Under the pieces are notes generated by a model. That model worked only from the letters and a program-made list of their open reading frames with translations, was not told where the DNA came from and did no database searches. Both the position numbers and the translations under genes were made by a program. From Chryseobacterium gleum (GTDB taxonomy: Bacteria > Bacteroidota > Bacteroidia > Flavobacteriales_D > Sanyastnellaceae), in the NCBI GenBank assembly GCA_945881835.1, contig CAMCVP010000003.1, forward strand, positions 114,917-178,916: a stretch of DNA of 64,000 bases, written 5' to 3'. Below, piece by piece: positions 10,125-53,977 of the stretch. Each line of letters begins with the position of its first letter. Positions within the stretch are counted from its first letter, which is position 1.

Positions 10125-10731
10125 ACGATTGAAAATCCTTCGCAAGATAAGGTTTTAATCGTTCTTTCGTTTCAACTTGAACAGCAATAATTTTCTCGAA
10201 TTCTGCTTGATTTTTAATAGGTCCGTTGTTCTTTCTATACAAAACAACAGCCTTGGCCTCTTTGTAGCTTAAATAGGGGTGAAGGGCAAGCTCTTCCTCG
10301 GTTTTTGTATTAATACCTAAGGGTTGAATAATCGCGGTGTTCACTTGAATCAAAGAGTGAATTCGTTCGAAAATGTTTTCTGGAAAATGATAAATTTCTA
10401 ACAATTGAAAGCTCGAGGAAAAACCTCCAAGTTGTTCACGATAAATGAGGATTTTCGAAATCAAATACCCTGGTATTTTCAATTGTAATAAATCACTTGA
10501 GTCAGCCGAATTGATTTCAACAGATTTTAGTTCAGTAGTTGAATTGTATTGATTGATCGGAATGTATACGCTATCCTTATGAGCTACGGAAAGCGAATCG
10601 TATTGAAGAATGATAGAACTGGTTGGGTAATAAAACGCAGCAATTTCCTTGTAGGTCAAATAACTTGCAGCCAGAGCAATCCAGATGAAAATACTCATTC
10701 GTTGGTCTTTAGAAAGTAGCGCACTTTTCAT
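10096..10731 (-). CDS. Membrane-anchored helix-hairpin-helix protein (ComEA-like)
   Basis: A 211-residue protein with one N-terminal transmembrane segment (MSIFIWIALAASYL, about residues 12-30) followed by two helix-hairpin-helix units: one around INSADSSDLLQLKIPGYLISKIL and one around LHPYLSYKEAKAVVLYRKNNG. This architecture is that of ComEA-like DNA-binding proteins, in which HhH motifs contact DNA on the outer face of the membrane. Role in DNA uptake is inferred from the fold only. ATG at 10731 is chosen over an upstream TTG. It overlaps apt at its 3' end. Confidence 0.75.
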   Translation of the reverse strand: MKSALLSKDQRMSIFIWIALAASYLTYKEIAAFYYPTSSIILQYDSLSVAHKDSVYIPINQYNSTTELKSVEINSADSSDLLQLKIPGYLISKILIYREQLGGFSSSFQLLEIYHFPENIFERIHSLIQVNTAIIQPLGINTKTEEELALHPYLSYKEAKAVVLYRKNNGPIKNQAEFEKIIAVQVETKERLKPYLAKDFQSYANTTGKSP

Positions 10732-10902
10732 GTTGTTTTTGTTTTCAAATTTCAATATTGAAAATCACTTGTCGAAATTGTACTTATTGGAAAAGCGCAT
10801 AATTTTCTAAGGATTAATTTCCGATTGTTTGAAAAAACAAGAAAATAGAAGGCTCATAACAGGAATGAAGTTATGTCTAAAATTCTAATATGAATGAATC
10901 AA

Positions 10903-13137
10903 CTAGCGCGAAAGGACGATATGTCCGTAAATAATTTCGTCGTCGCCAAATTGAGATTTGTATAAAATCTTGTACGAATAGGCTCCATTGGGCGCATAAT
11001 AATCGCCACTCCGAACATTTCCAGTCCAAAAAAAGTTTTGTTTGTTTCCTTCAAAAACAACATCACCCCAACGGTTGAAAATTGAAATTTGAATTTCATC
11101 TAATTGGTCGAAGACTGGGAACCATACATCGTTGACTCCGTCATTATTCGGAGTAAAGCTATTCGGAACAAACAAAGTGAATTCACATTTTTCATAAACA
11201 ACTTCAACGGTTTCGACCAATGTTCCGCAATAATTAGTTGCTGTTAAGGTATATGTGCCTGAGATTGTTGGGATAATCGAGGAGGTGTTTTCGGAAGTGC
11301 TCCAAAGAAATGCTTCCGCAAGGTTTTCGCCTGCATTCAAAGTTACAGGAAGATTCGAGCAGCGTATAACAGAGTCGGGCAGAACATCCAAAGGAGCGTA
11401 ATCCATAAAAATATCAATACTATCCAATGAAATACACACACCGTCATTCACCACCACGCTATAATTTCCGGGTGTACTAACTTGTAAAACAGTTGTTAGA
11501 TTTCCAGTGTTCCATGTTCCTGTTACACCTGCGTTTAAATTCAAAATTGTTCCCTCACAAATGGTTGTGTCGTTTCCTAAATTGACGATTGGTGGGAATT
11601 GAAAAGTGATGTTAATGGTATCTGAACTCAGGCAGCCGAGCGTTGAAAGACTTTGCCAGTATGCGCCAGAAGTAGTTGTGTTAATTTGATTGGAAATGAC
11701 ATTCGTATTCCATAGGCCGGTTGAATTCGATTGAATAGATGCAGTTTCGCCAATGCATAGAAACTGGTCTTGTCCAAGATATAAGATGGGTGGTGAAACT
11801 TCAAATGCAATAATGCTTTCAGCTGTTGCACAAAAATCGTTGTAGAGCACTACGGAATAATTTCCACCAGAATTTATCGCTAATGTAGGGTCGGTAGAGT
11901 TGTCGAAATTCCAACTGTATGCATTGGCATTGGACAAAGGGTCTAACACGATACTTTCTCCTGTGCAGAAGTATAAACTATCGGGCCAATTTGCAGTTGG
12001 ATAAATGAGTTCGGCGATATTTACCACGTCGCTTACGCTGCAGCTTCCATTAAACGCGGTAATCGTGTATGCACCGGCACCAGATACTGTAGGCGCGTTT
12101 GTGGTTTGTCCGCCTATGAATGCACCGCCGCTGTTTGTCCATAAAATGTTGGTGTATGTCCCTGTTACTTGTGCGTTCAGCGTTAAAATGCTATTGTCAC
12201 AAACGACAGAATCAGAAGGAACAGTTATAGTAGGATAGGGCAGAGTCGTCGCTAAAACAGAATATTGGTGAGGAATGCCACAAAAATCAGAGTATGATAC
12301 AGTGAATGTCGTATCGTTCAGCATAAGCGCATTAATCGTTGCAGCATTAGGATTGTCGATTATTCCTGCCGGTTCCCATTGGATGTTAGACGCCGCATTG
12401 GTTGGTGCGCTCAATGTAAGAATTCCCCCTTCACAAGTAGGCTGAGGAGTAATCATAGGATTCGCTGTACTTGGAAGACAAACAGTTTGCAGATTATTCA
12501 GTCCACCTGTGCTTCCAGAAAAGCCAAAGTAAACTATAGGGTTGCCTTGGAAGATCGTGTTAATCATATCTACAGTCACACTCAGTCTGAAGTTGCAATC
12601 GAAGTAACAACTAAAAGTCATAGAGGGAGCGTCCCAAACCATGCGTACTTGATGGCTTAAATTGTCTTCAATGTTTGGATTGGAAGCGTTGGCTTGAACT
12701 GGACCAGCAAGGTTGTTCGCCAAGGCGTGATTCATATTTCCATTTTTCAAAAAAGCAATGTGGTCATACCAAGGATCTGAATTTGGGCTGGTATTCGTGT
12801 AAGAATCGAATTCAACAGCAAACCCCACGGGTAATCCTTCAAAGCCCAATCCGCCGCCGCCAATTCCCAAGACATTGGTGCCAGCGGGTTGCAGGATAAA
12901 ACAATTACCATCGGCTCCTCCGTCATTTGCTCCGAAACTCATGGTGAAGTTTAGATCAAAACTTTGGTTTAAATTAATGGTTGATGTAGACCAAACAGAA
13001 CCGTTTTGGGTATTAAAAGCTGGAGTAAGTGTAAAGCAATTAGGCCCTGTCGCAAATGCGCTTCCATTCGTAACAAATTGTCCGAGGGAGGTTATAGTCA
13101 AAAAGACAAAAACTGTTAAGGCAAGCGTGAATCGCAT
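10903..13137 (-). CDS. Secreted L-type lectin with Ig-like repeats and T9SS type B sorting domain
   Basis: A 744-residue secreted protein. A signal peptide (MRFTLALTVFVFLTITSLGQ) is followed by a bacterial legume-lectin-like domain (about residues 20-215: FGANDGGADGNCF, GIGGGGLGFEG, FAVEFDSYTN, YDHIAFLKNG). Then come about five beta-rich Ig/PKD-like repeats of roughly 75-85 residues, each with motifs of the type NLGNDTTICEG and GNYSVVV. The end is the gliding-motility CHU_C domain (VPNSFTPNNDGVNDVWFPVF to HIVLSR). Such proteins are exported by T9SS and attached to or released from the cell surface; carbohydrate binding is inferred. ATG at 13137 lies 4 nt after a -7-like box. Confidence 0.88.
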   Translation of the reverse strand: MRFTLALTVFVFLTITSLGQFVTNGSAFATGPNCFTLTPAFNTQNGSVWSTSTINLNQSFDLNFTMSFGANDGGADGNCFILQPAGTNVLGIGGGGLGFEGLPVGFAVEFDSYTNTSPNSDPWYDHIAFLKNGNMNHALANNLAGPVQANASNPNIEDNLSHQVRMVWDAPSMTFSCYFDCNFRLSVTVDMINTIFQGNPIVYFGFSGSTGGLNNLQTVCLPSTANPMITPQPTCEGGILTLSAPTNAASNIQWEPAGIIDNPNAATINALMLNDTTFTVSYSDFCGIPHQYSVLATTLPYPTITVPSDSVVCDNSILTLNAQVTGTYTNILWTNSGGAFIGGQTTNAPTVSGAGAYTITAFNGSCSVSDVVNIAELIYPTANWPDSLYFCTGESIVLDPLSNANAYSWNFDNSTDPTLAINSGGNYSVVLYNDFCATAESIIAFEVSPPILYLGQDQFLCIGETASIQSNSTGLWNTNVISNQINTTTSGAYWQSLSTLGCLSSDTINITFQFPPIVNLGNDTTICEGTILNLNAGVTGTWNTGNLTTVLQVSTPGNYSVVVNDGVCISLDSIDIFMDYAPLDVLPDSVIRCSNLPVTLNAGENLAEAFLWSTSENTSSIIPTISGTYTLTATNYCGTLVETVEVVYEKCEFTLFVPNSFTPNNDGVNDVWFPVFDQLDEIQISIFNRWGDVVFEGNKQNFFWTGNVRSGDYYAPNGAYSYKILYKSQFGDDEIIYGHIVLSR

Positions 13138-48901: not shown

Positions 48902-48933
48902 AAAAAAGTGAAGGCGCTGAATTTCAGCGCCTT
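48902..48933 (-). terminator. Terminator of the SMC/kleisin operon
   Basis: A perfect palindromic stem AAGGCGCTGA-ATT-TCAGCGCCTT followed on the minus strand by CACTTTTTT. It begins 21 nt after the stop of the secreted-protein gene at 48954, so that gene belongs to the operon. Confidence 0.9.
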
Positions 48934-48953: not shown

Positions 48954-49412
48954 TTATTCGGCTCCTGGGACTTCCGCTTCTTCAACTTCGGCTCCGAACA
49001 TGAATAGTGCCGCGGCGAAGTCGCATTCAATTTCATACAACTCAACCATAATGGAATTGTACATTTCCGGAGTGTCAAGCTCTGTGTTATCGTACTTCAT
49101 TTCCATTTTTGAAATGCAACGCAAGAATTGTCCGTTGTCGTCGCTCATGCTCTGCATCCATTGCATGTCTCTCGCTGCCTTCTCTGGATTATTGGTAACG
49201 AAAGTGATCATGGCATTGTTGAACTCCTCTTGGGTTTCAGCAATTAATTTGAAGTTGATGATTTCGCGAAACTCAGGACTTACGTTGGTTTCAATGATAC
49301 GAGAGCATTCACAGATGTCAATGGCAGCTTGACGTTCGAGTGATTGTCCGAATGTTTTGTTGCTTGCAATAAATGCGAATGCAATCGATAGTGTGAAGAT
49401 TAGTTTTTTCAT
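48954..49412 (-). CDS. Secreted protein at the end of the SMC operon
   Basis: A 152-residue exported protein: signal peptide MKKLIFTLSIAFAFIASNKTFGQ, then a helical domain with Cys residues in IDICECSRIIE and CISKMEMKY and ECDFAAALF, and an acidic C-terminus (GAEVEEAEVPGAE). I do not recognise the family. Its ATG overlaps the stop of the MksE-like gene (ATGA), so translation is coupled with a cytoplasmic condensin-like set, an odd pairing for an envelope protein. Confidence 0.75.
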   Translation of the reverse strand: MKKLIFTLSIAFAFIASNKTFGQSLERQAAIDICECSRIIETNVSPEFREIINFKLIAETQEEFNNAMITFVTNNPEKAARDMQWMQSMSDDNGQFLRCISKMEMKYDNTELDTPEMYNSIMVELYEIECDFAAALFMFGAEVEEAEVPGAE

Positions 49413-49954
49413 TGGTCAGCGGTTTGTGTTTCTGGTTCGCCTTTGATTCGTTTCAATGCTAGCTCTTTAGCGAAGTCAATAAATACTTTGTATGCTTGTG
49501 TAAAGGTAAAACGGTCTTCGAATGTTTTGAAAATAATATTTCTTCGCGCCATACCATTCAGTAAGGTTCTTCTGCTCTCATTGTCTCGCAAAGTCTTGTT
49601 GCTTTCTATCAAATCAATGAATGAGCTATTCAAAAAATAGTTGTCAATTTCTTCGAATGAGAATTCATTGAAGTCGAAAGACTCAATGAAATTGCGCCCG
49701 TCGCGATCCAACTCGTAGCTCAGAATGGCTATGAAAATACTTACATCTCGAGAGAAATTTTCTTGCGTGTCTTTGCTGAGCAAGTAACTGAATTCAGGCT
49801 TCATAATCAACTCTAGGTCGAATGAAATCTTGAAGAATTCTGTGTAGAACGATTCGTTTTCTTTCAAACTATTGAAATGTTCTTCGTTATTCAACAAGAA
49901 CTTTCCACTCATGAGTTCTTCAACAATTTGTCTATGGTGCGCTGGATATACCAT
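49409..49954 (-). CDS. MukE/MksE/JetB-like winged-helix protein
   Basis: A 181-residue acidic, helical protein. It shows the layout of MksE-type condensin subunits: an N-terminal segment HHRQIVEELMSGKFLLNNEEHFNSL (shown in parts), then FYTEFFKISFDLELIMKPEFSYLLS, and a C-terminal winged-helix-like stretch LLNGMARRNIIFKTFEDRFTF. In MukBEF-type complexes this subunit binds the kleisin. It starts 1 nt after the kleisin-like gene's stop. Assignment is by architecture and operon position; a profile search would be needed to fix the family. Confidence 0.65.
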   Translation of the reverse strand: MVYPAHHRQIVEELMSGKFLLNNEEHFNSLKENESFYTEFFKISFDLELIMKPEFSYLLSKDTQENFSRDVSIFIAILSYELDRDGRNFIESFDFNEFSFEEIDNYFLNSSFIDLIESNKTLRDNESRRTLLNGMARRNIIFKTFEDRFTFTQAYKVFIDFAKELALKRIKGEPETQTADQ

Positions 49955-49955
49955 G

Positions 49956-51152
49956 TTATAATTTTATTGCGGGTTCAATTTTTAATTTAGGCACGTCGAG
50001 TATCGATGTTGTCGTTTCGATTGAAACACGGTCGCTTTTTTTCGAGTAATCGATTTGTAATTCTTCATCAAACAACAATCCGGTTACCGCAAAGAACTTA
50101 TCTGTTTCAATTTGATCGAAATCTTTTTTCAATGCATTGAAGCACCATCCGAAGAAGTCGTTCACAGGCATACTTGCCGAAAGTTTTTCCTTGAATAAGG
50201 TTCTGTCGAAAATCCAACGGTCGAAATCGGCTTCTGAATTTTCCACGATAACAGGCGCTTCAATTTGAAACTGCTCAAAGAACTCACGTACTTTGAAGTA
50301 CATGTCTTTCGCGTATACCATTGTGCGCGTTCCTTTCAACAACGATGGTGTTTCCACTTTATACGGATTGCGAAGGAACTCAATGAATCCGGTAAGAATT
50401 AAAGATTCTGTGCGAATGCGTTCGAGTAACGGAAGCAATTCATTCGTTAGAATTTTCGATTGTTTCAGTAAGTCTTGGTTGGTTTGAATGAGTTGCGTGT
50501 AGAGCTTTTCATATTCACTTCGAGTGGTCTCGTCGGAATAATCGAGGCGCTTGCGGTTCGCGTATTCGCACACTTCAACCAATTTGCTTGTCACTGATTC
50601 GCTATGATTCACATCGAGAATGCGGTTCAATGGAAGAATGTAGTATTCAATCCAGAACGAAGCCTTATGCACTTTTTCGCGGTATTGCACGCGATCGATA
50701 TTCGATTTCAAATCACGCGTTTCGCTTAACAAGCGGAATGCATTTCGTTCAACCAAATCAACGAATTCACGGACTTGTCCAGAAAGATTCTTAATCCTTT
50801 CTTGAAGAATATCGCGATCGGAATGTTCGCTTTTGCGAATCTTCATGAACAGTTCAGAAATGGCTCCTTTGTATTTTTCAATGGTTTCCGGGAGAAGCGG
50901 TTTGAATTCAAACAACAAAAATTCCATCAACTTGAAATACACATCGCGCATTTCGTAATCACTTCCAATCGAACGAACAACACGGTATTCACGCAAACGA
51001 CTTTTCATTTGCGCCCCATGTTTGTGACAAATCATATCGAATACTTCCTTCGTAATGAGCCCGTCTTGTTGTTGGTATTCAAACAAGTCGCGCACCACAT
51101 CGAAGTACGTGTTCAGGAAGTTGAGTATTGTCCGAGGTTCGGCTTTGATCAT
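49956..51152 (-). CDS. MukF/MksF/JetA-like kleisin subunit
   Basis: A 398-residue, almost entirely helical protein. N-terminal winged-helix-like region (TILNFLNTYFDVVRDLFEYQ, about residues 7-90), long helices with coiled-coil character in the middle (RIKNLSGQVREFVDLVERNAF, LYTQLIQTNQDLLKQSKILT), and a C-terminal beta-containing domain (FFAVTGLLFDEELQIDYSKK). This matches kleisins of the MukF type, which bridge SMC heads. The ATG at 51152 is chosen: it overlaps the stop of the 35-residue micro-ORF (ATGA); an upstream ATG at 51179 lies inside that frame. Confidence 0.65.
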   Translation of the reverse strand: MIKAEPRTILNFLNTYFDVVRDLFEYQQQDGLITKEVFDMICHKHGAQMKSRLREYRVVRSIGSDYEMRDVYFKLMEFLLFEFKPLLPETIEKYKGAISELFMKIRKSEHSDRDILQERIKNLSGQVREFVDLVERNAFRLLSETRDLKSNIDRVQYREKVHKASFWIEYYILPLNRILDVNHSESVTSKLVEVCEYANRKRLDYSDETTRSEYEKLYTQLIQTNQDLLKQSKILTNELLPLLERIRTESLILTGFIEFLRNPYKVETPSLLKGTRTMVYAKDMYFKVREFFEQFQIEAPVIVENSEADFDRWIFDRTLFKEKLSASMPVNDFFGWCFNALKKDFDQIETDKFFAVTGLLFDEELQIDYSKKSDRVSIETTTSILDVPKLKIEPAIKL

Positions 51153-51256
51153 TTTTCTTCTGATTCTAAATGGTAGCAAACTTTTACTTCTTCAATTTCT
51201 TGAATGTTTGTTGGGTAAAGGTTTGCAAAGTCTGGGGCTGTTAGTAATGTTGACAT
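51149..51256 (-). CDS. 35-residue micro-ORF between the SMC and kleisin-like genes
   Basis: ATG at 51256, TGA at 51151-51149. The peptide begins MSTLLTAPDFANLYPTNI and ends VKVCYHLESEEK, acidic and soluble, with no membrane helix. It starts 4 nt after the SMC stop and its TGA overlaps the kleisin-like ATG by four nucleotides, so it fills the gap exactly with coupled junctions on both sides. It may be a real small subunit, a translation coupler, or the N-terminus of the kleisin reached by a -1 frameshift on the A5 run just before the stop. Confidence 0.6.
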   Translation of the reverse strand: MSTLLTAPDFANLYPTNIQEIEEVKVCYHLESEEK

Positions 51257-51260
51257 ATGA

Positions 51261-53918
51261 TTATGATATTTTTAGGTCTTCACGACGTACAGCGTGCTGT
51301 CTGTCGTTCAAATTAATTTTTCCTTTCGAACGGAAGATGAAGTAGTACTTCGAGAATCCGTCATATGGTTGCGGTGCAGCGAAGATTGGAAGGAAGTTGT
51401 GCTCTTTGCAGAACTGAACCAACTGCGGACGGTTGTGTTCGTCAATGGTTCCAATCTCGTCGATGAACAACGCGATTTTGTTTTCAGGAGCAGATACAGC
51501 CAAGCGGTTAATGATGGCCATAACGATAACCAAGCGTATCATGCGGTCAGTTCCATCGGACTCTACTTGCTCTTTCAAGTCAACGCGCTTCAACTTTCCT
51601 TTCACATCCAAATGAAGTTCAATATCGAACAAATCTTCGAAATCAATGGTCTTTCCGGCGTCTAGGTATTGATTTAAAATTTTCAAATCTTCACCTTGCT
51701 CAAATTCGAAAGCCAATTGCGAATTCAAATTTTCAATCGAAGCGATACGCTCTAAGTCAAACAATACACGTTTGTTATCTACGAGTTCAATGCGAAGCGA
51801 TTCGATGTTTGAAATTCGAGTTTTTGCAAGACTTTCGTTGAAGCGATTGTACACGAATGTTTTAAATTCTTCGTAACGCTTGCGCAAGTTGAATGCTGGA
51901 TTCGCGAATTGCGTAGAGATACTCCCCAAAAGGCCGTCGATACTTTTTACTTTATCGTTGATACATGCAATCTCATCTTCCAAATATTTGATGAATTCTA
52001 CTTCATCTGCCATTGCAGAATTTGTTTTGAAACGCAAGTGGTCGAACATTCGGTCTTTGTTGCCTTTCAGCGTATCGCGATCGGTGTTCGAGATCTTAAT
52101 TTTCCCGTAAATTTCATCCAATGATTCCGTTGTCTCAAATTCTGTTGGAATAATTCCGAAGGTTTCAATTTCGGCTTTTCTTCTTTTCAATTCAATCAAA
52201 CGCTCTTCGCTGCGACGCGTCTCTTCGCGCAATGAATCGAGTAGGAGTGTTTTGTCGGAAAGGTCTTTTTTCAACTTACTTAAATCTCCTTCGCACTTCT
52301 CTTTTTCGGCCTTCATGGTGCGTAGTTCTTTTCCTACCGCTTCAGCTTCTTTTTCAAGTTTTGGTTTGTTCTTCAGCTTGTTCAACTTCTCTTTTACTTC
52401 ATCAATGTCGGCAAGAATTGTATTCAACTCTTTTTGCGCTTTATCGAAGTTTAACGCAACGGCCCATAATTTCTCTAGCTCAACTTTTTCTCTCTTTAAT
52501 TCTTGAAGTTCATCTTTCAATGATTTCACTGAAGGGATATCTGCAAGAACCATGTCTTTCGGCAAGGTAATTTCACCGTCGAAAATGCTTAATGTGGTTC
52601 CAGCCTTGGTGATTTTTTTCTTCACCAACTTGCTTGGAAGCGCCGCGAATTCTTGAGAAAATACAGTGTTCAAGATTTTACGAATATCATCTTTCGCTGT
52701 AATCTTGTGAATTAACTGATCGTCGTAATTTTTAATTTGTGCTTCAAGCTTACCGCAAGTCATATCAATCTTTTGAAGCTTCGCTTCCAAGTTCTTCGAA
52801 TCTAATTTTTGATTCTCGACCATGGTAATGCGCACCTCGGATTCACGGCGTTTTGCATCGAGGTTTAGTAAAGACTCCTCTAAAAATTTCTTTCCTTCAA
52901 ACGAGGCTATTTCATCTAATTGTGTTTGAAGATTAATGAATGTTTTTTCTTGAATTTCAACCTCTAACTCGCGCTTACCCAAATCACGGTTTAACTCTTC
53001 TTGCTTTGGTTTTAGCTTTTCATTCAGGTTGAGCAACGTTGTTTGATACTGCTTTTCTTTTTCCAAACGAGAGCTGTCGAGTTCATTGATAACACCGTTG
53101 TATTGTTTGTCGAAGGCATAAACCAAATCGCTAACGATGCGCGTTTTTGCTTTGAACAAATTCACCACTTCACGGAATTCTTCGAACTCCTTTTGAATAC
53201 TTTTTACTGTGCGAATTTCTTCGTTGATACGAAGCAAATCGTTGATGTCTTTTTTGTTTTTCTGCGAAAAGCTGAGGCCTTCGTTTTCGCGATTATCTGC
53301 AACAATTAGGCTTTCTTTTAAGGTCTTGTTCGTGATTAACTTCGAGTTAATCAAGTAACGATATACTTTCGAGAAATTGTTTGATAGCCCATCTGTACGA
53401 ACGCTGTCTTCCAACCAAATGGCGGCATCGTTCTTTCTTCCTCTTGAATAGACAGTATTGAAGACCTCAGTTTTACTCTTGAATAAGTAAAGGTCTACAC
53501 CTGCGGTTTTAAGTTCATCTTGCACTTCATCCCACTTGCGAATGCGCTGATGATCACCTTCTTTTTTAAAGAAGTTTTCGGCATTGTACTCTCCAGAGAG
53601 GCGAAAGTATTCCAATTCACCATCGCTATCTCTTTTAACAAGAATGCAATAGTTGGAATCGTTCTTCTTTATTTCGAAAATAATGTAACTCTGGTTGTGA
53701 GTAGGGAAGTAGTGATGAATGGTTTCCTTGTCTCCGCGGCGCTGCCCAGAAAAGGACATCTTCGATCCATCTACGATGAACAAGAAGTTCAAGGTGTAAA
53801 TAAGGGTTGACTTACCAACGTTATTAGGTCCTACCAATTGCAATGAATCGCAATCGTCTAAACGCATTTCCGCGTTCACATAGGTGCTGGTGTTTATCCC
53901 AATAATTCGGGTGATCAT
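51261..53918 (-). CDS. SMC-like condensin ATPase (MukB/MksB/JetC-like)
   Basis: An 885-residue SMC-fold ATPase. Walker A is GPNNVGKST (residues 30-38) after the N-terminal strand ITRIIGINTSTYVNAEMRL; the Q-loop region lies near HNQSYIIFEIKK (75-86). Coiled coils run about 235-405 and 465-620, separated by a compact hinge-like insert (408-465). The C-terminal head has a signature-like ESDGTDRMIRLVI (786-797) and Walker B IALFIDEIGTID (815-826). Shorter than MukB (about 1480) and near MksB-size. First gene of an operon with micro-ORF, kleisin-like and MksE-like genes. A DNA-compacting role is inferred from the architecture. Confidence 0.75.
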   Translation of the reverse strand: MITRIIGINTSTYVNAEMRLDDCDSLQLVGPNNVGKSTLIYTLNFLFIVDGSKMSFSGQRRGDKETIHHYFPTHNQSYIIFEIKKNDSNYCILVKRDSDGELEYFRLSGEYNAENFFKKEGDHQRIRKWDEVQDELKTAGVDLYLFKSKTEVFNTVYSRGRKNDAAIWLEDSVRTDGLSNNFSKVYRYLINSKLITNKTLKESLIVADNRENEGLSFSQKNKKDINDLLRINEEIRTVKSIQKEFEEFREVVNLFKAKTRIVSDLVYAFDKQYNGVINELDSSRLEKEKQYQTTLLNLNEKLKPKQEELNRDLGKRELEVEIQEKTFINLQTQLDEIASFEGKKFLEESLLNLDAKRRESEVRITMVENQKLDSKNLEAKLQKIDMTCGKLEAQIKNYDDQLIHKITAKDDIRKILNTVFSQEFAALPSKLVKKKITKAGTTLSIFDGEITLPKDMVLADIPSVKSLKDELQELKREKVELEKLWAVALNFDKAQKELNTILADIDEVKEKLNKLKNKPKLEKEAEAVGKELRTMKAEKEKCEGDLSKLKKDLSDKTLLLDSLREETRRSEERLIELKRRKAEIETFGIIPTEFETTESLDEIYGKIKISNTDRDTLKGNKDRMFDHLRFKTNSAMADEVEFIKYLEDEIACINDKVKSIDGLLGSISTQFANPAFNLRKRYEEFKTFVYNRFNESLAKTRISNIESLRIELVDNKRVLFDLERIASIENLNSQLAFEFEQGEDLKILNQYLDAGKTIDFEDLFDIELHLDVKGKLKRVDLKEQVESDGTDRMIRLVIVMAIINRLAVSAPENKIALFIDEIGTIDEHNRPQLVQFCKEHNFLPIFAAPQPYDGFSKYYFIFRSKGKINLNDRQHAVRREDLKIS

Positions 53919-53969: not shown

Positions 53970-53977
53970 CAAAACTA
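53970..53977 (-). promoter_or_regulatory. -7 box of the SMC/kleisin operon
   Basis: TAGTTTTG on the minus strand fits TAnnTTTG and lies 51 nt before the ATG at 53918. A short stem GCGAT/ATCGC occurs in the leader. The operon is thus separable from the tadA operon upstream. Confidence 0.55.

What the first reader, a model, noticed from the sequence alone, without database searches (positions are those of the whole stretch)
48954..53918. Condensin-like SMC operon in non-standard order with a secreted passenger
Seen: minus-strand operon of SMC-fold ATPase (885 aa), 35-codon micro-ORF, kleisin-like protein (398 aa), MksE-like winged-helix protein (181 aa) and a secreted protein, every junction within 4 nt, one promoter (53970-53977) and one terminator (48902-48933). 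Known: MukBEF and MksBEF/JetABC systems normally run kleisin-MksE-ATPase, and Wadjet adds a JetD topoisomerase-like nuclease. Inferred: this is a Bacteroidota condensin of the Muk/Mks type with the ATPase gene first and no JetD. The housekeeping setting argues for a chromosome role over a defence role, but plasmid restriction cannot be excluded.
Basis: partly seen in the sequence, partly recalled or inferred. Interest (0 to 1): 0.75.

Follow-up and report, generated by a model that had tools for sequence, protein, structure and literature searches.

The report
Defence condensin turned chromosome organiser
These genes encode a predicted three-part DNA-looping machine of the Muk/Mks/Wadjet kind whose cousins carry a predicted plasmid-cutting nuclease; this version has no such nuclease gene in its operon, sits in a genome where the usual organiser Smc-ScpAB was not found, and likely folds the bacterium's own chromosome.

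Summary
Observation confirmed: a tight minus-strand operon of an 885-aa ABC-type coiled-coil ATPase, a 35-codon ORF, a 398-aa kleisin-like protein, MksE (PF21980, E 1.2e-17) and a secreted protein. The order is a Bacteroidota family trait: the kleisin follows the ATPase in 74 of 80 related loci (four other contigs end too soon, two operons are split). Ten of the 80 loci carry a JetD-like TOPRIM gene between ATPase and kleisin; one keeps only its end; two operons with 98% identical ATPases differ in having it. The window's genome shows no match to that JetD-like profile, no ScpA, no ScpB and no SMC over cut-off. The three core genes are under very strong purifying selection (dN/dS 0.014-0.037) in a conserved neighbourhood. 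Best reading: a Wadjet-type system in circularly permuted order whose nuclease was shed repeatedly, now likely a chromosomal condensin. Against: 38 of 60 relatives have no recognised condensin; the link between nuclease loss and Smc-ScpAB loss is not significant once phylogeny is respected; PADLOC scores AriA and LmuB above JetC for the ATPase family; the kleisin assignment rests on position and profiles, since no structure could be predicted.

The parts
51261..53918 (-). SMC-type ABC ATPase (MksB/JetC-like), 885 aa; Walker A residues 30-38 (53805-53831), signature QVESDGTD 784-791 (51546-51569), Walker B 815-821 (51456-51476); no CxxC hook
   Evidence: PF12128 E 1.4e-14, over cut-off; relatives: AriA 17 of 18, JetC1 11 of 18, LmuB up to 7 of 18; no CxxC; K36, S37, S787, G789, T790, D820, E821 identical in 81 of 82 rows, the other row gapped at the site
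51149..51256 (-). 35-codon micro-ORF with the motif V-[KR]-x-x-[YF]-x-L; overlaps the kleisin start by 4 nt
   Evidence: found in 15 of 15 loci of the window's clade that hold both genes; dN/dS 0.04-0.30 among four close pairs, 0.49 against L063; kept beside the kleisin in L179 after the operon split
49956..51152 (-). kleisin-like subunit (MksF/JetA position), 398 aa
   Evidence: (profile matches the kleisin-position protein of pSR76 3.9e-14 and pMPPla107 5.3e-6, not that of pPP6 0.088); no Pfam, PADLOC or PDB match
49409..49954 (-). MksE-family (KITE/JetB-like) subunit, 181 aa
   Evidence: PF21980 MksE E 1.2e-17, 65.2 bits against cut-off 27; only match in the genome
48954..49412 (-). Predicted secreted 152-aa protein; operon passenger limited to near kin, probably not part of the complex
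   Evidence: matches in 4 of 80 loci: L060, L061, L063, L064
48911..48933 (-). intrinsic terminator, 10-bp stem then T run
53970..53977 (-). TAnnTTTG promoter-like octamer 51 nt upstream of the ATPase start; chance-level pattern

Best explanation
The operon encodes a predicted compact SMC-type complex (ABC-type coiled-coil ATPase, a kleisin-like protein assigned by position and profile, and an MksE-family protein) in a genome with no detected ScpA, ScpB, SMC over cut-off or family JetD-like gene, and it likely descends from a Wadjet-type plasmid-defence system that lost its nuclease and now likely extrudes DNA loops on the host's own chromosome. Shown: the genes, the MksE family, conserved ATPase motifs, the order ATPase-(JetD-like)-kleisin-MksE across the family, a JetD-like TOPRIM gene in ten relatives, a remnant in one, its absence here, no Smc-ScpAB match here, strong purifying selection, a stable neighbourhood. 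Inferred: that the absence of JetD is derived by loss (from far relatives, congruent gene trees, one remnant and one near-identical pair). Untested: that the three proteins form a complex, extrude loops and act on the chromosome; that the micro-ORF makes a small subunit of the kleisin half. Expected working, by analogy with MukBEF/MksBEF: kleisin and MksE bridge the ATPase heads of an SMC dimer, ATP cycles reel in DNA, and without JetD no cut follows.
For: MksE: PF21980 E 1.2e-17. ATPase: PF12128 over cut-off; relatives match JetC1 in 11 of 18. JetD-like gene between ATPase and kleisin in 10 of 80 loci: nine seen as ORFs, L129 read. Of six tested, PADLOC JetD1 in four, best 4e-5, and JetD_C or DUF7281 in five, all below cut-off; E142, D185 and D187 invariant in nine of nine aligned, taken as the TOPRIM acidic residues by recall. 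Remnant of model positions 217-262 in L108/G381, E 3.6e-7. L115 and L116: ATPases 98.4% identical, JetD absent from one operon, present in the other. Far relatives L175 and plasmid pSR76 (canonical order kleisin-MksE-ATPase-JetD) carry it. JetD and ATPase trees show no supported conflict. Own genome: no match to the JetD-like profile, ScpA, ScpB, or SMC over cut-off. Nuclease-less pairs with ATPase identity of 90% or more share a flanking gene in 39 of 47, nuclease-bearing pairs in 0 of 3. dN/dS of the trio 0.014-0.037 against DEAD helicase 0.021-0.026 and rpe 0.017-0.027. ATPase presence is all-or-none in each of the 9 genera of the family sampled more than once.
Against: 38 of 60 relatives have neither ScpA, nor MksE, nor this ATPase, so a condensin seems dispensable or replaced in this order. 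Seven of the ten nuclease-bearing genomes also lack ScpA; with phylogeny respected only 4 independent pairs exist, sign test p 0.5 or more. Unordered parsimony gives 5 changes and cannot tell gain from loss. Two nuclease-bearing systems (L116, L124) sit among housekeeping genes, so the mobile/resident split is not clean, and flanks of nuclease-less loci other than the window's were not scanned for mobile genes. Absence of the nuclease elsewhere was tested only with the family's own nine-sequence profile, not with PF09983. PADLOC's best E-values for the ATPase family are AriA (2e-8) and LmuB (1.4e-7), ahead of JetC1 (6.5e-6), and the window's own ATPase has no JetC match. The kleisin matches no known family and fails against one of three plasmid counterparts. 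No structure was obtained.
Confidence: 0.6

Rival explanations
1. It is still a defence system: the nuclease-less complex silences or excludes incoming circular DNA by extrusion and compaction, or works with an unrelated or canonical nuclease encoded elsewhere.
For: Relatives with the nuclease look like Wadjet, four of them near defence or mobile genes. The system is absent from many genera of the same family. A review says that Smc5/6 could compact circular DNA and prevent viral gene expression (PMC10586767, passages). Canonical JetD was not searched in the genome.
Against: No match to the JetD-like profile in the own genome; selection as strong as on the DEAD helicase and rpe neighbours; stable neighbourhood; genus-level all-or-none presence; no match in phage records, none confirmed in viral contigs, five plasmid records with under 60% identity and none covering 80% of the query.
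Confidence: 0.24
2. It is another ABC-type coiled-coil system (Rad50/SbcC or RecN repair, PARIS AriA, Lamassu LmuB or AbiLi-like) that happens to lie beside an MksE gene.
For: PADLOC lists AriA (17 of 18 relatives, best 2e-8), LmuB (7 of 18 for one model; 6 of 18, best 1.4e-7, for another) and AbiLi (3 of 18, best 3.9e-7), all with better best E-values than JetC1; some sources name homologues SbcCD ATPase subunit.
Against: MksE follows in 70 of 80 loci; in the other ten the contig ends (eight) or the operon is split with MksE on another contig (two). No CxxC hook. In the window protein the AriA match covers only residues 28-148. JetC1 matches in 11 of 18.
Confidence: 0.07
3. It is a decaying remnant of a defence system on its way to loss.
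For: The nuclease is gone, and one relative (L108) shows a nuclease in decay.
Against: dN/dS 0.014-0.037 for the three core genes in the window's genus and 0.030-0.060 in two other nuclease-less pairs; key ATPase residues identical in 81 of 81 rows with letters; both halves kept where the operon has split.
Confidence: 0.04

Closest known systems
Wadjet (JetABCD / MksBEFG / EptABCD)
   Same: MksE/JetB-family subunit, JetC1 matches in 11 of 18 relatives' ATPases, a kleisin-position gene, and in ten relatives a JetD-like TOPRIM gene in the same operon
   Different: No JetD-like gene in the window's operon; order ATPase-(JetD)-kleisin-MksE, a circular permutation of JetA-B-C-D; JetD-like protein 261-279 aa against a 382-position PADLOC JetD1 model; ATPase 885 aa against 1111 aa for C. 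glutamicum MksB (PMC10123090, passages)
MksBEF of Pseudomonas aeruginosa (nuclease-less, chromosomal)
   Same: Three-subunit set without JetD; [quoted passage not shown]
   Different: Gene order F-E-B (recalled for this system; mksFEBG is stated for the nuclease-bearing operons in PMC10123090, passages); P. aeruginosa also has SMC (PMC7485682, start of abstract in the listing), while the window's genome has no SMC match over cut-off
MukBEF of E. coli
   Same: Works-like: ATPase, kleisin and KITE without a nuclease, in a host without ScpA (E. coli is not among the control genomes that ring)
   Different: Order mukF-mukE-mukB; MukB 1486 aa; profile comparison covers only the MukB N-terminal head at 18.5% probability and finds nothing for MukF or MukE
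Smc-ScpAB
   Same: General SMC, kleisin and KITE plan; proposed role
   Different: No ScpA or ScpB match and no SMC match over cut-off in the window's genome

Membership tests
Wadjet (JetABCD) | JetD TOPRIM nuclease in the operon | tested here: not met
   Absent from the window's operon and no match to the family's JetD-like profile in the genome; present in 10 of 80 relatives' operons
Wadjet (JetABCD) | JetB/MksE-family subunit | tested here: met
   PF21980 E 1.2e-17
Wadjet (JetABCD) | JetC-type SMC ATPase | tested here: inconclusive
   Window ATPase: PF12128 over cut-off but no PADLOC JetC match; 11 of 18 relatives match JetC1, best 6.5e-6, behind AriA 2e-8 and LmuB 1.4e-7 (72)
Wadjet (JetABCD) | JetA kleisin | tested here: inconclusive
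   No kleisin or JetA match in PADLOC or Pfam for any of 23 members; profile matches kleisin-position proteins of two of three canonical-order plasmid operons, 3.9e-14 and 5.3e-6 against 0.088, in files of four or five proteins
Wadjet (JetABCD) | gene order A-B-C-D | tested here: not met
   C-(D)-A-B in the family (35, 36)
MksBEF | MksE subunit | tested here: met
MksBEF | MksB-like ATPase of the DUF3584/MukB group | tested here: met
   PF12128 E 1.4e-14, 53.1 bits against 31; in the genome search only the C-terminal part was scored, 31 bits with its neighbours
MksBEF | MksF kleisin fold | tested here: inconclusive
   No fold obtained; sequence evidence as above
MksBEF | order F-E-B | tested here: not met
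   B-F-E
MksBEF | role in chromosome organisation | not testable with these tools
   needs Hi-C or deletion
MukBEF | homology of all three subunits to E. coli MukB, MukE, MukF | tested here: inconclusive
   hhalign against single E. coli sequences: MukF 0.4%, MukE 0.8%, MukB 18.5% probability (76-78)
MukBEF | order F-E-B | tested here: not met
Smc-ScpAB | ScpA and ScpB partners, SMC model over cut-off | tested here: not met
Rad50/SbcC | zinc-hook CxxC at the apex | tested here: not met
   no CxxC in the 885 aa

The most novel reading that the evidence does not exclude
A new condensin class: a circularly permuted Wadjet that shed its nuclease several times independently, took the place of Smc-ScpAB as the chromosome's loop extruder in a broad group of Bacteroidota, and in one clade gained a 33-41-residue microprotein that stays with the kleisin. 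The family holds, side by side, armed, decaying and disarmed versions, so the conversion of an immune machine into a chromosome organiser can be watched in nature.
Probability: 0.35. Interest if true: 0.9.

Novelty: new variant of a known kind. Interest (0 to 1): 0.72.

Why it matters
[quoted passage not shown] This family offers close relatives with the nuclease present, decaying and absent, so the idea becomes directly testable. [quoted passage not shown] this family is a candidate in other Bacteroidota that lack Smc-ScpAB, though it was not tested in those gut species.

Tried and rejected
PDB sequence searches gave mainly coiled-coil chance matches for the ATPase and nothing relevant for kleisin and MksE (7-9, 52-54). 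Profile comparison with single E. coli MukF and MukE sequences was uninformative. The micro-ORF as a leftover of JetD: the JetD-like profile found nothing in the window's genome, and I saw no convincing alignment by eye. Mobile-element origin of the window's own copy: no match in phage records, none confirmed in viral contigs, only partial plasmid matches under 60% identity. The promoter octamer was dropped as chance-level. Regex counts of the signature and Walker B motifs were badly written and are replaced by the alignment count. A formal test of the link between nuclease loss and Smc-ScpAB loss had too few independent pairs. Literature searches for a described case found the general hypothesis of JetD loss but I saw no paper on this family in their listings or in the passages read; the library lacks most subscription papers. 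Of 170 relatives found only the best 80 were returned, which under-samples the far, nuclease-bearing side.
Full report
OBSERVATION. The five minus-strand ORFs, their lengths and their tight junctions are as described, and a clean terminator follows. The promoter octamer is present but such octamers are no commoner than chance in the window. The window lies in a 2.53-Mb draft genome of 38 contigs, 99.3% complete.

WHAT THE PROTEINS ARE. The 181-aa protein is MksE (PF21980, E 1.2e-17), the only one in the genome. The 885-aa protein matches DUF3584/PF12128 over cut-off. It has an ABC Walker A (GPNNVGKST), a signature QVESDGTD and a Walker B ...FIDE; K36, S37, S787, G789, T790, D820 and E821 are identical in 81 of 82 aligned rows, the remaining row being gapped at the site. 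It has no CxxC hook. Among 18 family members PADLOC finds AriA in 17 (best 2e-8), JetC1 in 11 (6.5e-6), LmuB in up to 7 for one model (best of all LmuB models 1.4e-7) and AbiLi in 3 (3.9e-7); the window's own ATPase has an AriA match over residues 28-148 and no JetC match. So the ATPase alone does not settle the family; the MksE partner and the JetD-like gene of relatives do most of that work. The 398-aa protein matches no kleisin family of Pfam or PADLOC in any of 23 members and nothing in the PDB, and its 120 best homologues carry no Pfam domain. Its family profile matches the first gene of two plasmid operons that run kleisin-position, MksE, ATPase: Salinibacter pSR76 (3.9e-14) and Pseudomonas pMPPla107 (5.3e-6). 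It fails on a third, Persicobacter pPP6 (0.088, no better than other proteins there). These E-values are for files of three to five proteins; hhalign against pSR76 gives 90.5% probability.

THE FAMILY. A scan of the species-genome collection gave 170 relatives, of which the best 80 were returned. In 74 of 80 the kleisin gene lies downstream of the ATPase on the same strand (four of these cut by the contig end), and in 70 of 80 MksE follows it. Of the six without kleisin, four contigs end within about 230 bases (L078, L093, L103, L122). Two (L071, L075) have split operons: in the same genomes kleisin plus MksE lie on another contig. In a few loci other genes are inserted (L065, L094). So the order is a family trait. 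It is a circular permutation of Wadjet's A-B-C-D order, which is mksF-E-B-G in C. glutamicum (PMC10123090, passages).

THE MISSING NUCLEASE. Between ATPase and kleisin, ten of the 80 loci carry a gene of 261-279 codons (L116, L124, L129, L130, L133, L134, L135, L137, L138, L139). Of six tested, four match PADLOC JetD1 (2e-4, 4e-3, 4e-5, 9e-5; L116 and L124 do not) and five match JetD_C or DUF7281, all below Pfam's cut-offs (L116 does not). The pattern ...EN..., KYGR.G, DYD..G is invariant in nine of nine aligned (L129 was read separately). The fourth gene of pSR76 is a homologue (hhalign 98.3%; DUF7281 over and JetD_C just under cut-off). With the family's JetD-like profile, 12 of 75 genomes match (at least four genomes in that list are entered twice under different handles, all without a match). 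Ten are those at the operon. G367 has one in a second complete operon on another contig, besides its nuclease-less copy (L175). G381 (L108) has only model positions 217-262, in a stretch that looks repeat-rich. The window's genome and the 27 other genomes in that call that are at least 90% complete have none. L115 and L116 have ATPases 98.4% identical and share one flanking gene of three, yet one operon lacks the nuclease and the other has it (L115's whole genome was not searched). The JetD tree and the ATPase tree have no supported conflict. Parsimony needs five changes and by itself cannot tell gain from loss. The far relatives with JetD, the fixed position, the congruent trees, the remnant and the near-identical pair favour repeated loss.

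HOST AND SELECTION. ScpA is found in 0 of 60 relatives, own genome included, but in 247 of 296 genomes sampled evenly from the phylum. In 67 chosen genomes ScpB and an SMC over cut-off occur in the same eight, which are seven genomes, since G186 and G397 have identical coordinates; all also have ScpA. Every one of the 67 has sub-cut-off SMC matches, most of them far below the cut-off. Among 50 genomes of the family, ScpA occurs in 0 of 40 without JetD in the operon and in 3 of 10 with it. These are not independent: with phylogeny respected there are four pairs, one or two in the expected direction, none against, p 0.5 or more. Within the window's family the ATPase is present in all or none of the genomes of each of the nine genera sampled at least twice. 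Nuclease-less pairs with ATPase identity of at least 90% share a flanking gene in 39 of 47 cases, nuclease-bearing pairs in 0 of 3 (three loci; L130 and L138 had too few flanking genes), mixed pairs in 1 of 3. Ten flanking proteins of five nuclease-bearing loci, picked by eye, gave an integrase, a resolvase, GmrSD, HNH, a WYL-type regulator, DUF2779, DUF6088, AbiEii and an IS110 transposase at four loci, and no match for the one from L137. L116 and L124 sit among housekeeping genes by the four proteins tested. Flanks of nuclease-less loci other than the window's were not scanned. dN/dS of the trio against three congeners is 0.014-0.037, like DEAD helicase (0.021-0.026) and rpe (0.017-0.027); other neighbours reach 0.132. 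Two other nuclease-less pairs give 0.030-0.060. Four pairs of nuclease-bearing Flavobacteriaceae systems give 0.046-0.40, with dS of only 0.05-0.47; two of the pairs join different named genera (Mesonia-Nonlabens, Arenibacter-Mesonia), which suggests recent transfer.

THE MICRO-ORF. A 33-41-codon ORF with the motif V-[KR]-x-x-[YF]-x-L precedes the kleisin in 15 of 15 loci of the window's clade (ATPase identity 76% or more) that hold both genes. It remains beside the kleisin when another gene is inserted after the ATPase (L065) and, in L179, after the operon has split (in L178 only a diverged candidate is seen). dN/dS is 0.04-0.30 in four close pairs and 0.49 against L063. It is probably a small protein acting with the kleisin half; this is untested.

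READING. I commit to a Wadjet-derived, nuclease-shed condensin that likely acts on the host chromosome. The general idea is in print: PMC10586767 (passages) says P. [quoted passage not shown] What is new here is a family with permuted order, armed, decaying and disarmed members, and hosts without Smc-ScpAB. I saw no paper describing it in ten searches of an open-access library.

LIMITS. 38 of 60 relatives have no ScpA, no MksE and no such ATPase (PF12128 adds only two matches below cut-off among them), so condensins may be optional or replaced in this order. Many genomes are draft MAGs. Absence is by profile search, and for the nuclease only with the family's own profile. Sampling is biased to close relatives because only 80 of 170 loci were returned.

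Noticed in passing
60 relatives of the window's genome: No genome of this sample (own genus, family and order) has ScpA, and 38 of 60 also lack MksE and this ATPase: a lineage in which many genomes have no recognised condensin.
   Followed up: partly
L175 (G367:C31) and L081: One genome carries both a nuclease-less copy and, on another contig, a complete JetD-bearing operon with an HTH-like gene upstream and sbcD/sbcC-like genes downstream (named by eye from sequence).
   Followed up: partly
L071/L182/L179 (G310) and L075/L184/L178 (G309): The operon has split into an ATPase locus and a kleisin-MksE locus in two related genomes.
   Followed up: partly
L060 7489-7929, L063 5329-5769, L064 12994-13434: A second, diverged copy of the secreted passenger gene follows the first in tandem in three near kin.
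   Followed up: no
L176 (G343:C2:138000-154000): A different Mks-type system with a PF21980 match at E 6.9e-42, two extra genes between the MksE and ATPase genes, and a 288-aa protein after a 1224-aa ATPase.
   Followed up: no
L065 about 10700-11750: An open frame on the opposite strand lies between ATPase and micro-ORF; the micro-ORF stays with the kleisin.
   Followed up: no
L172 4001-4244 (Salinibacter ruber plasmid pSR76): The protein match to the ATPase begins 243 nt before the annotated CDS start, so the annotated start is probably too late.
   Followed up: no
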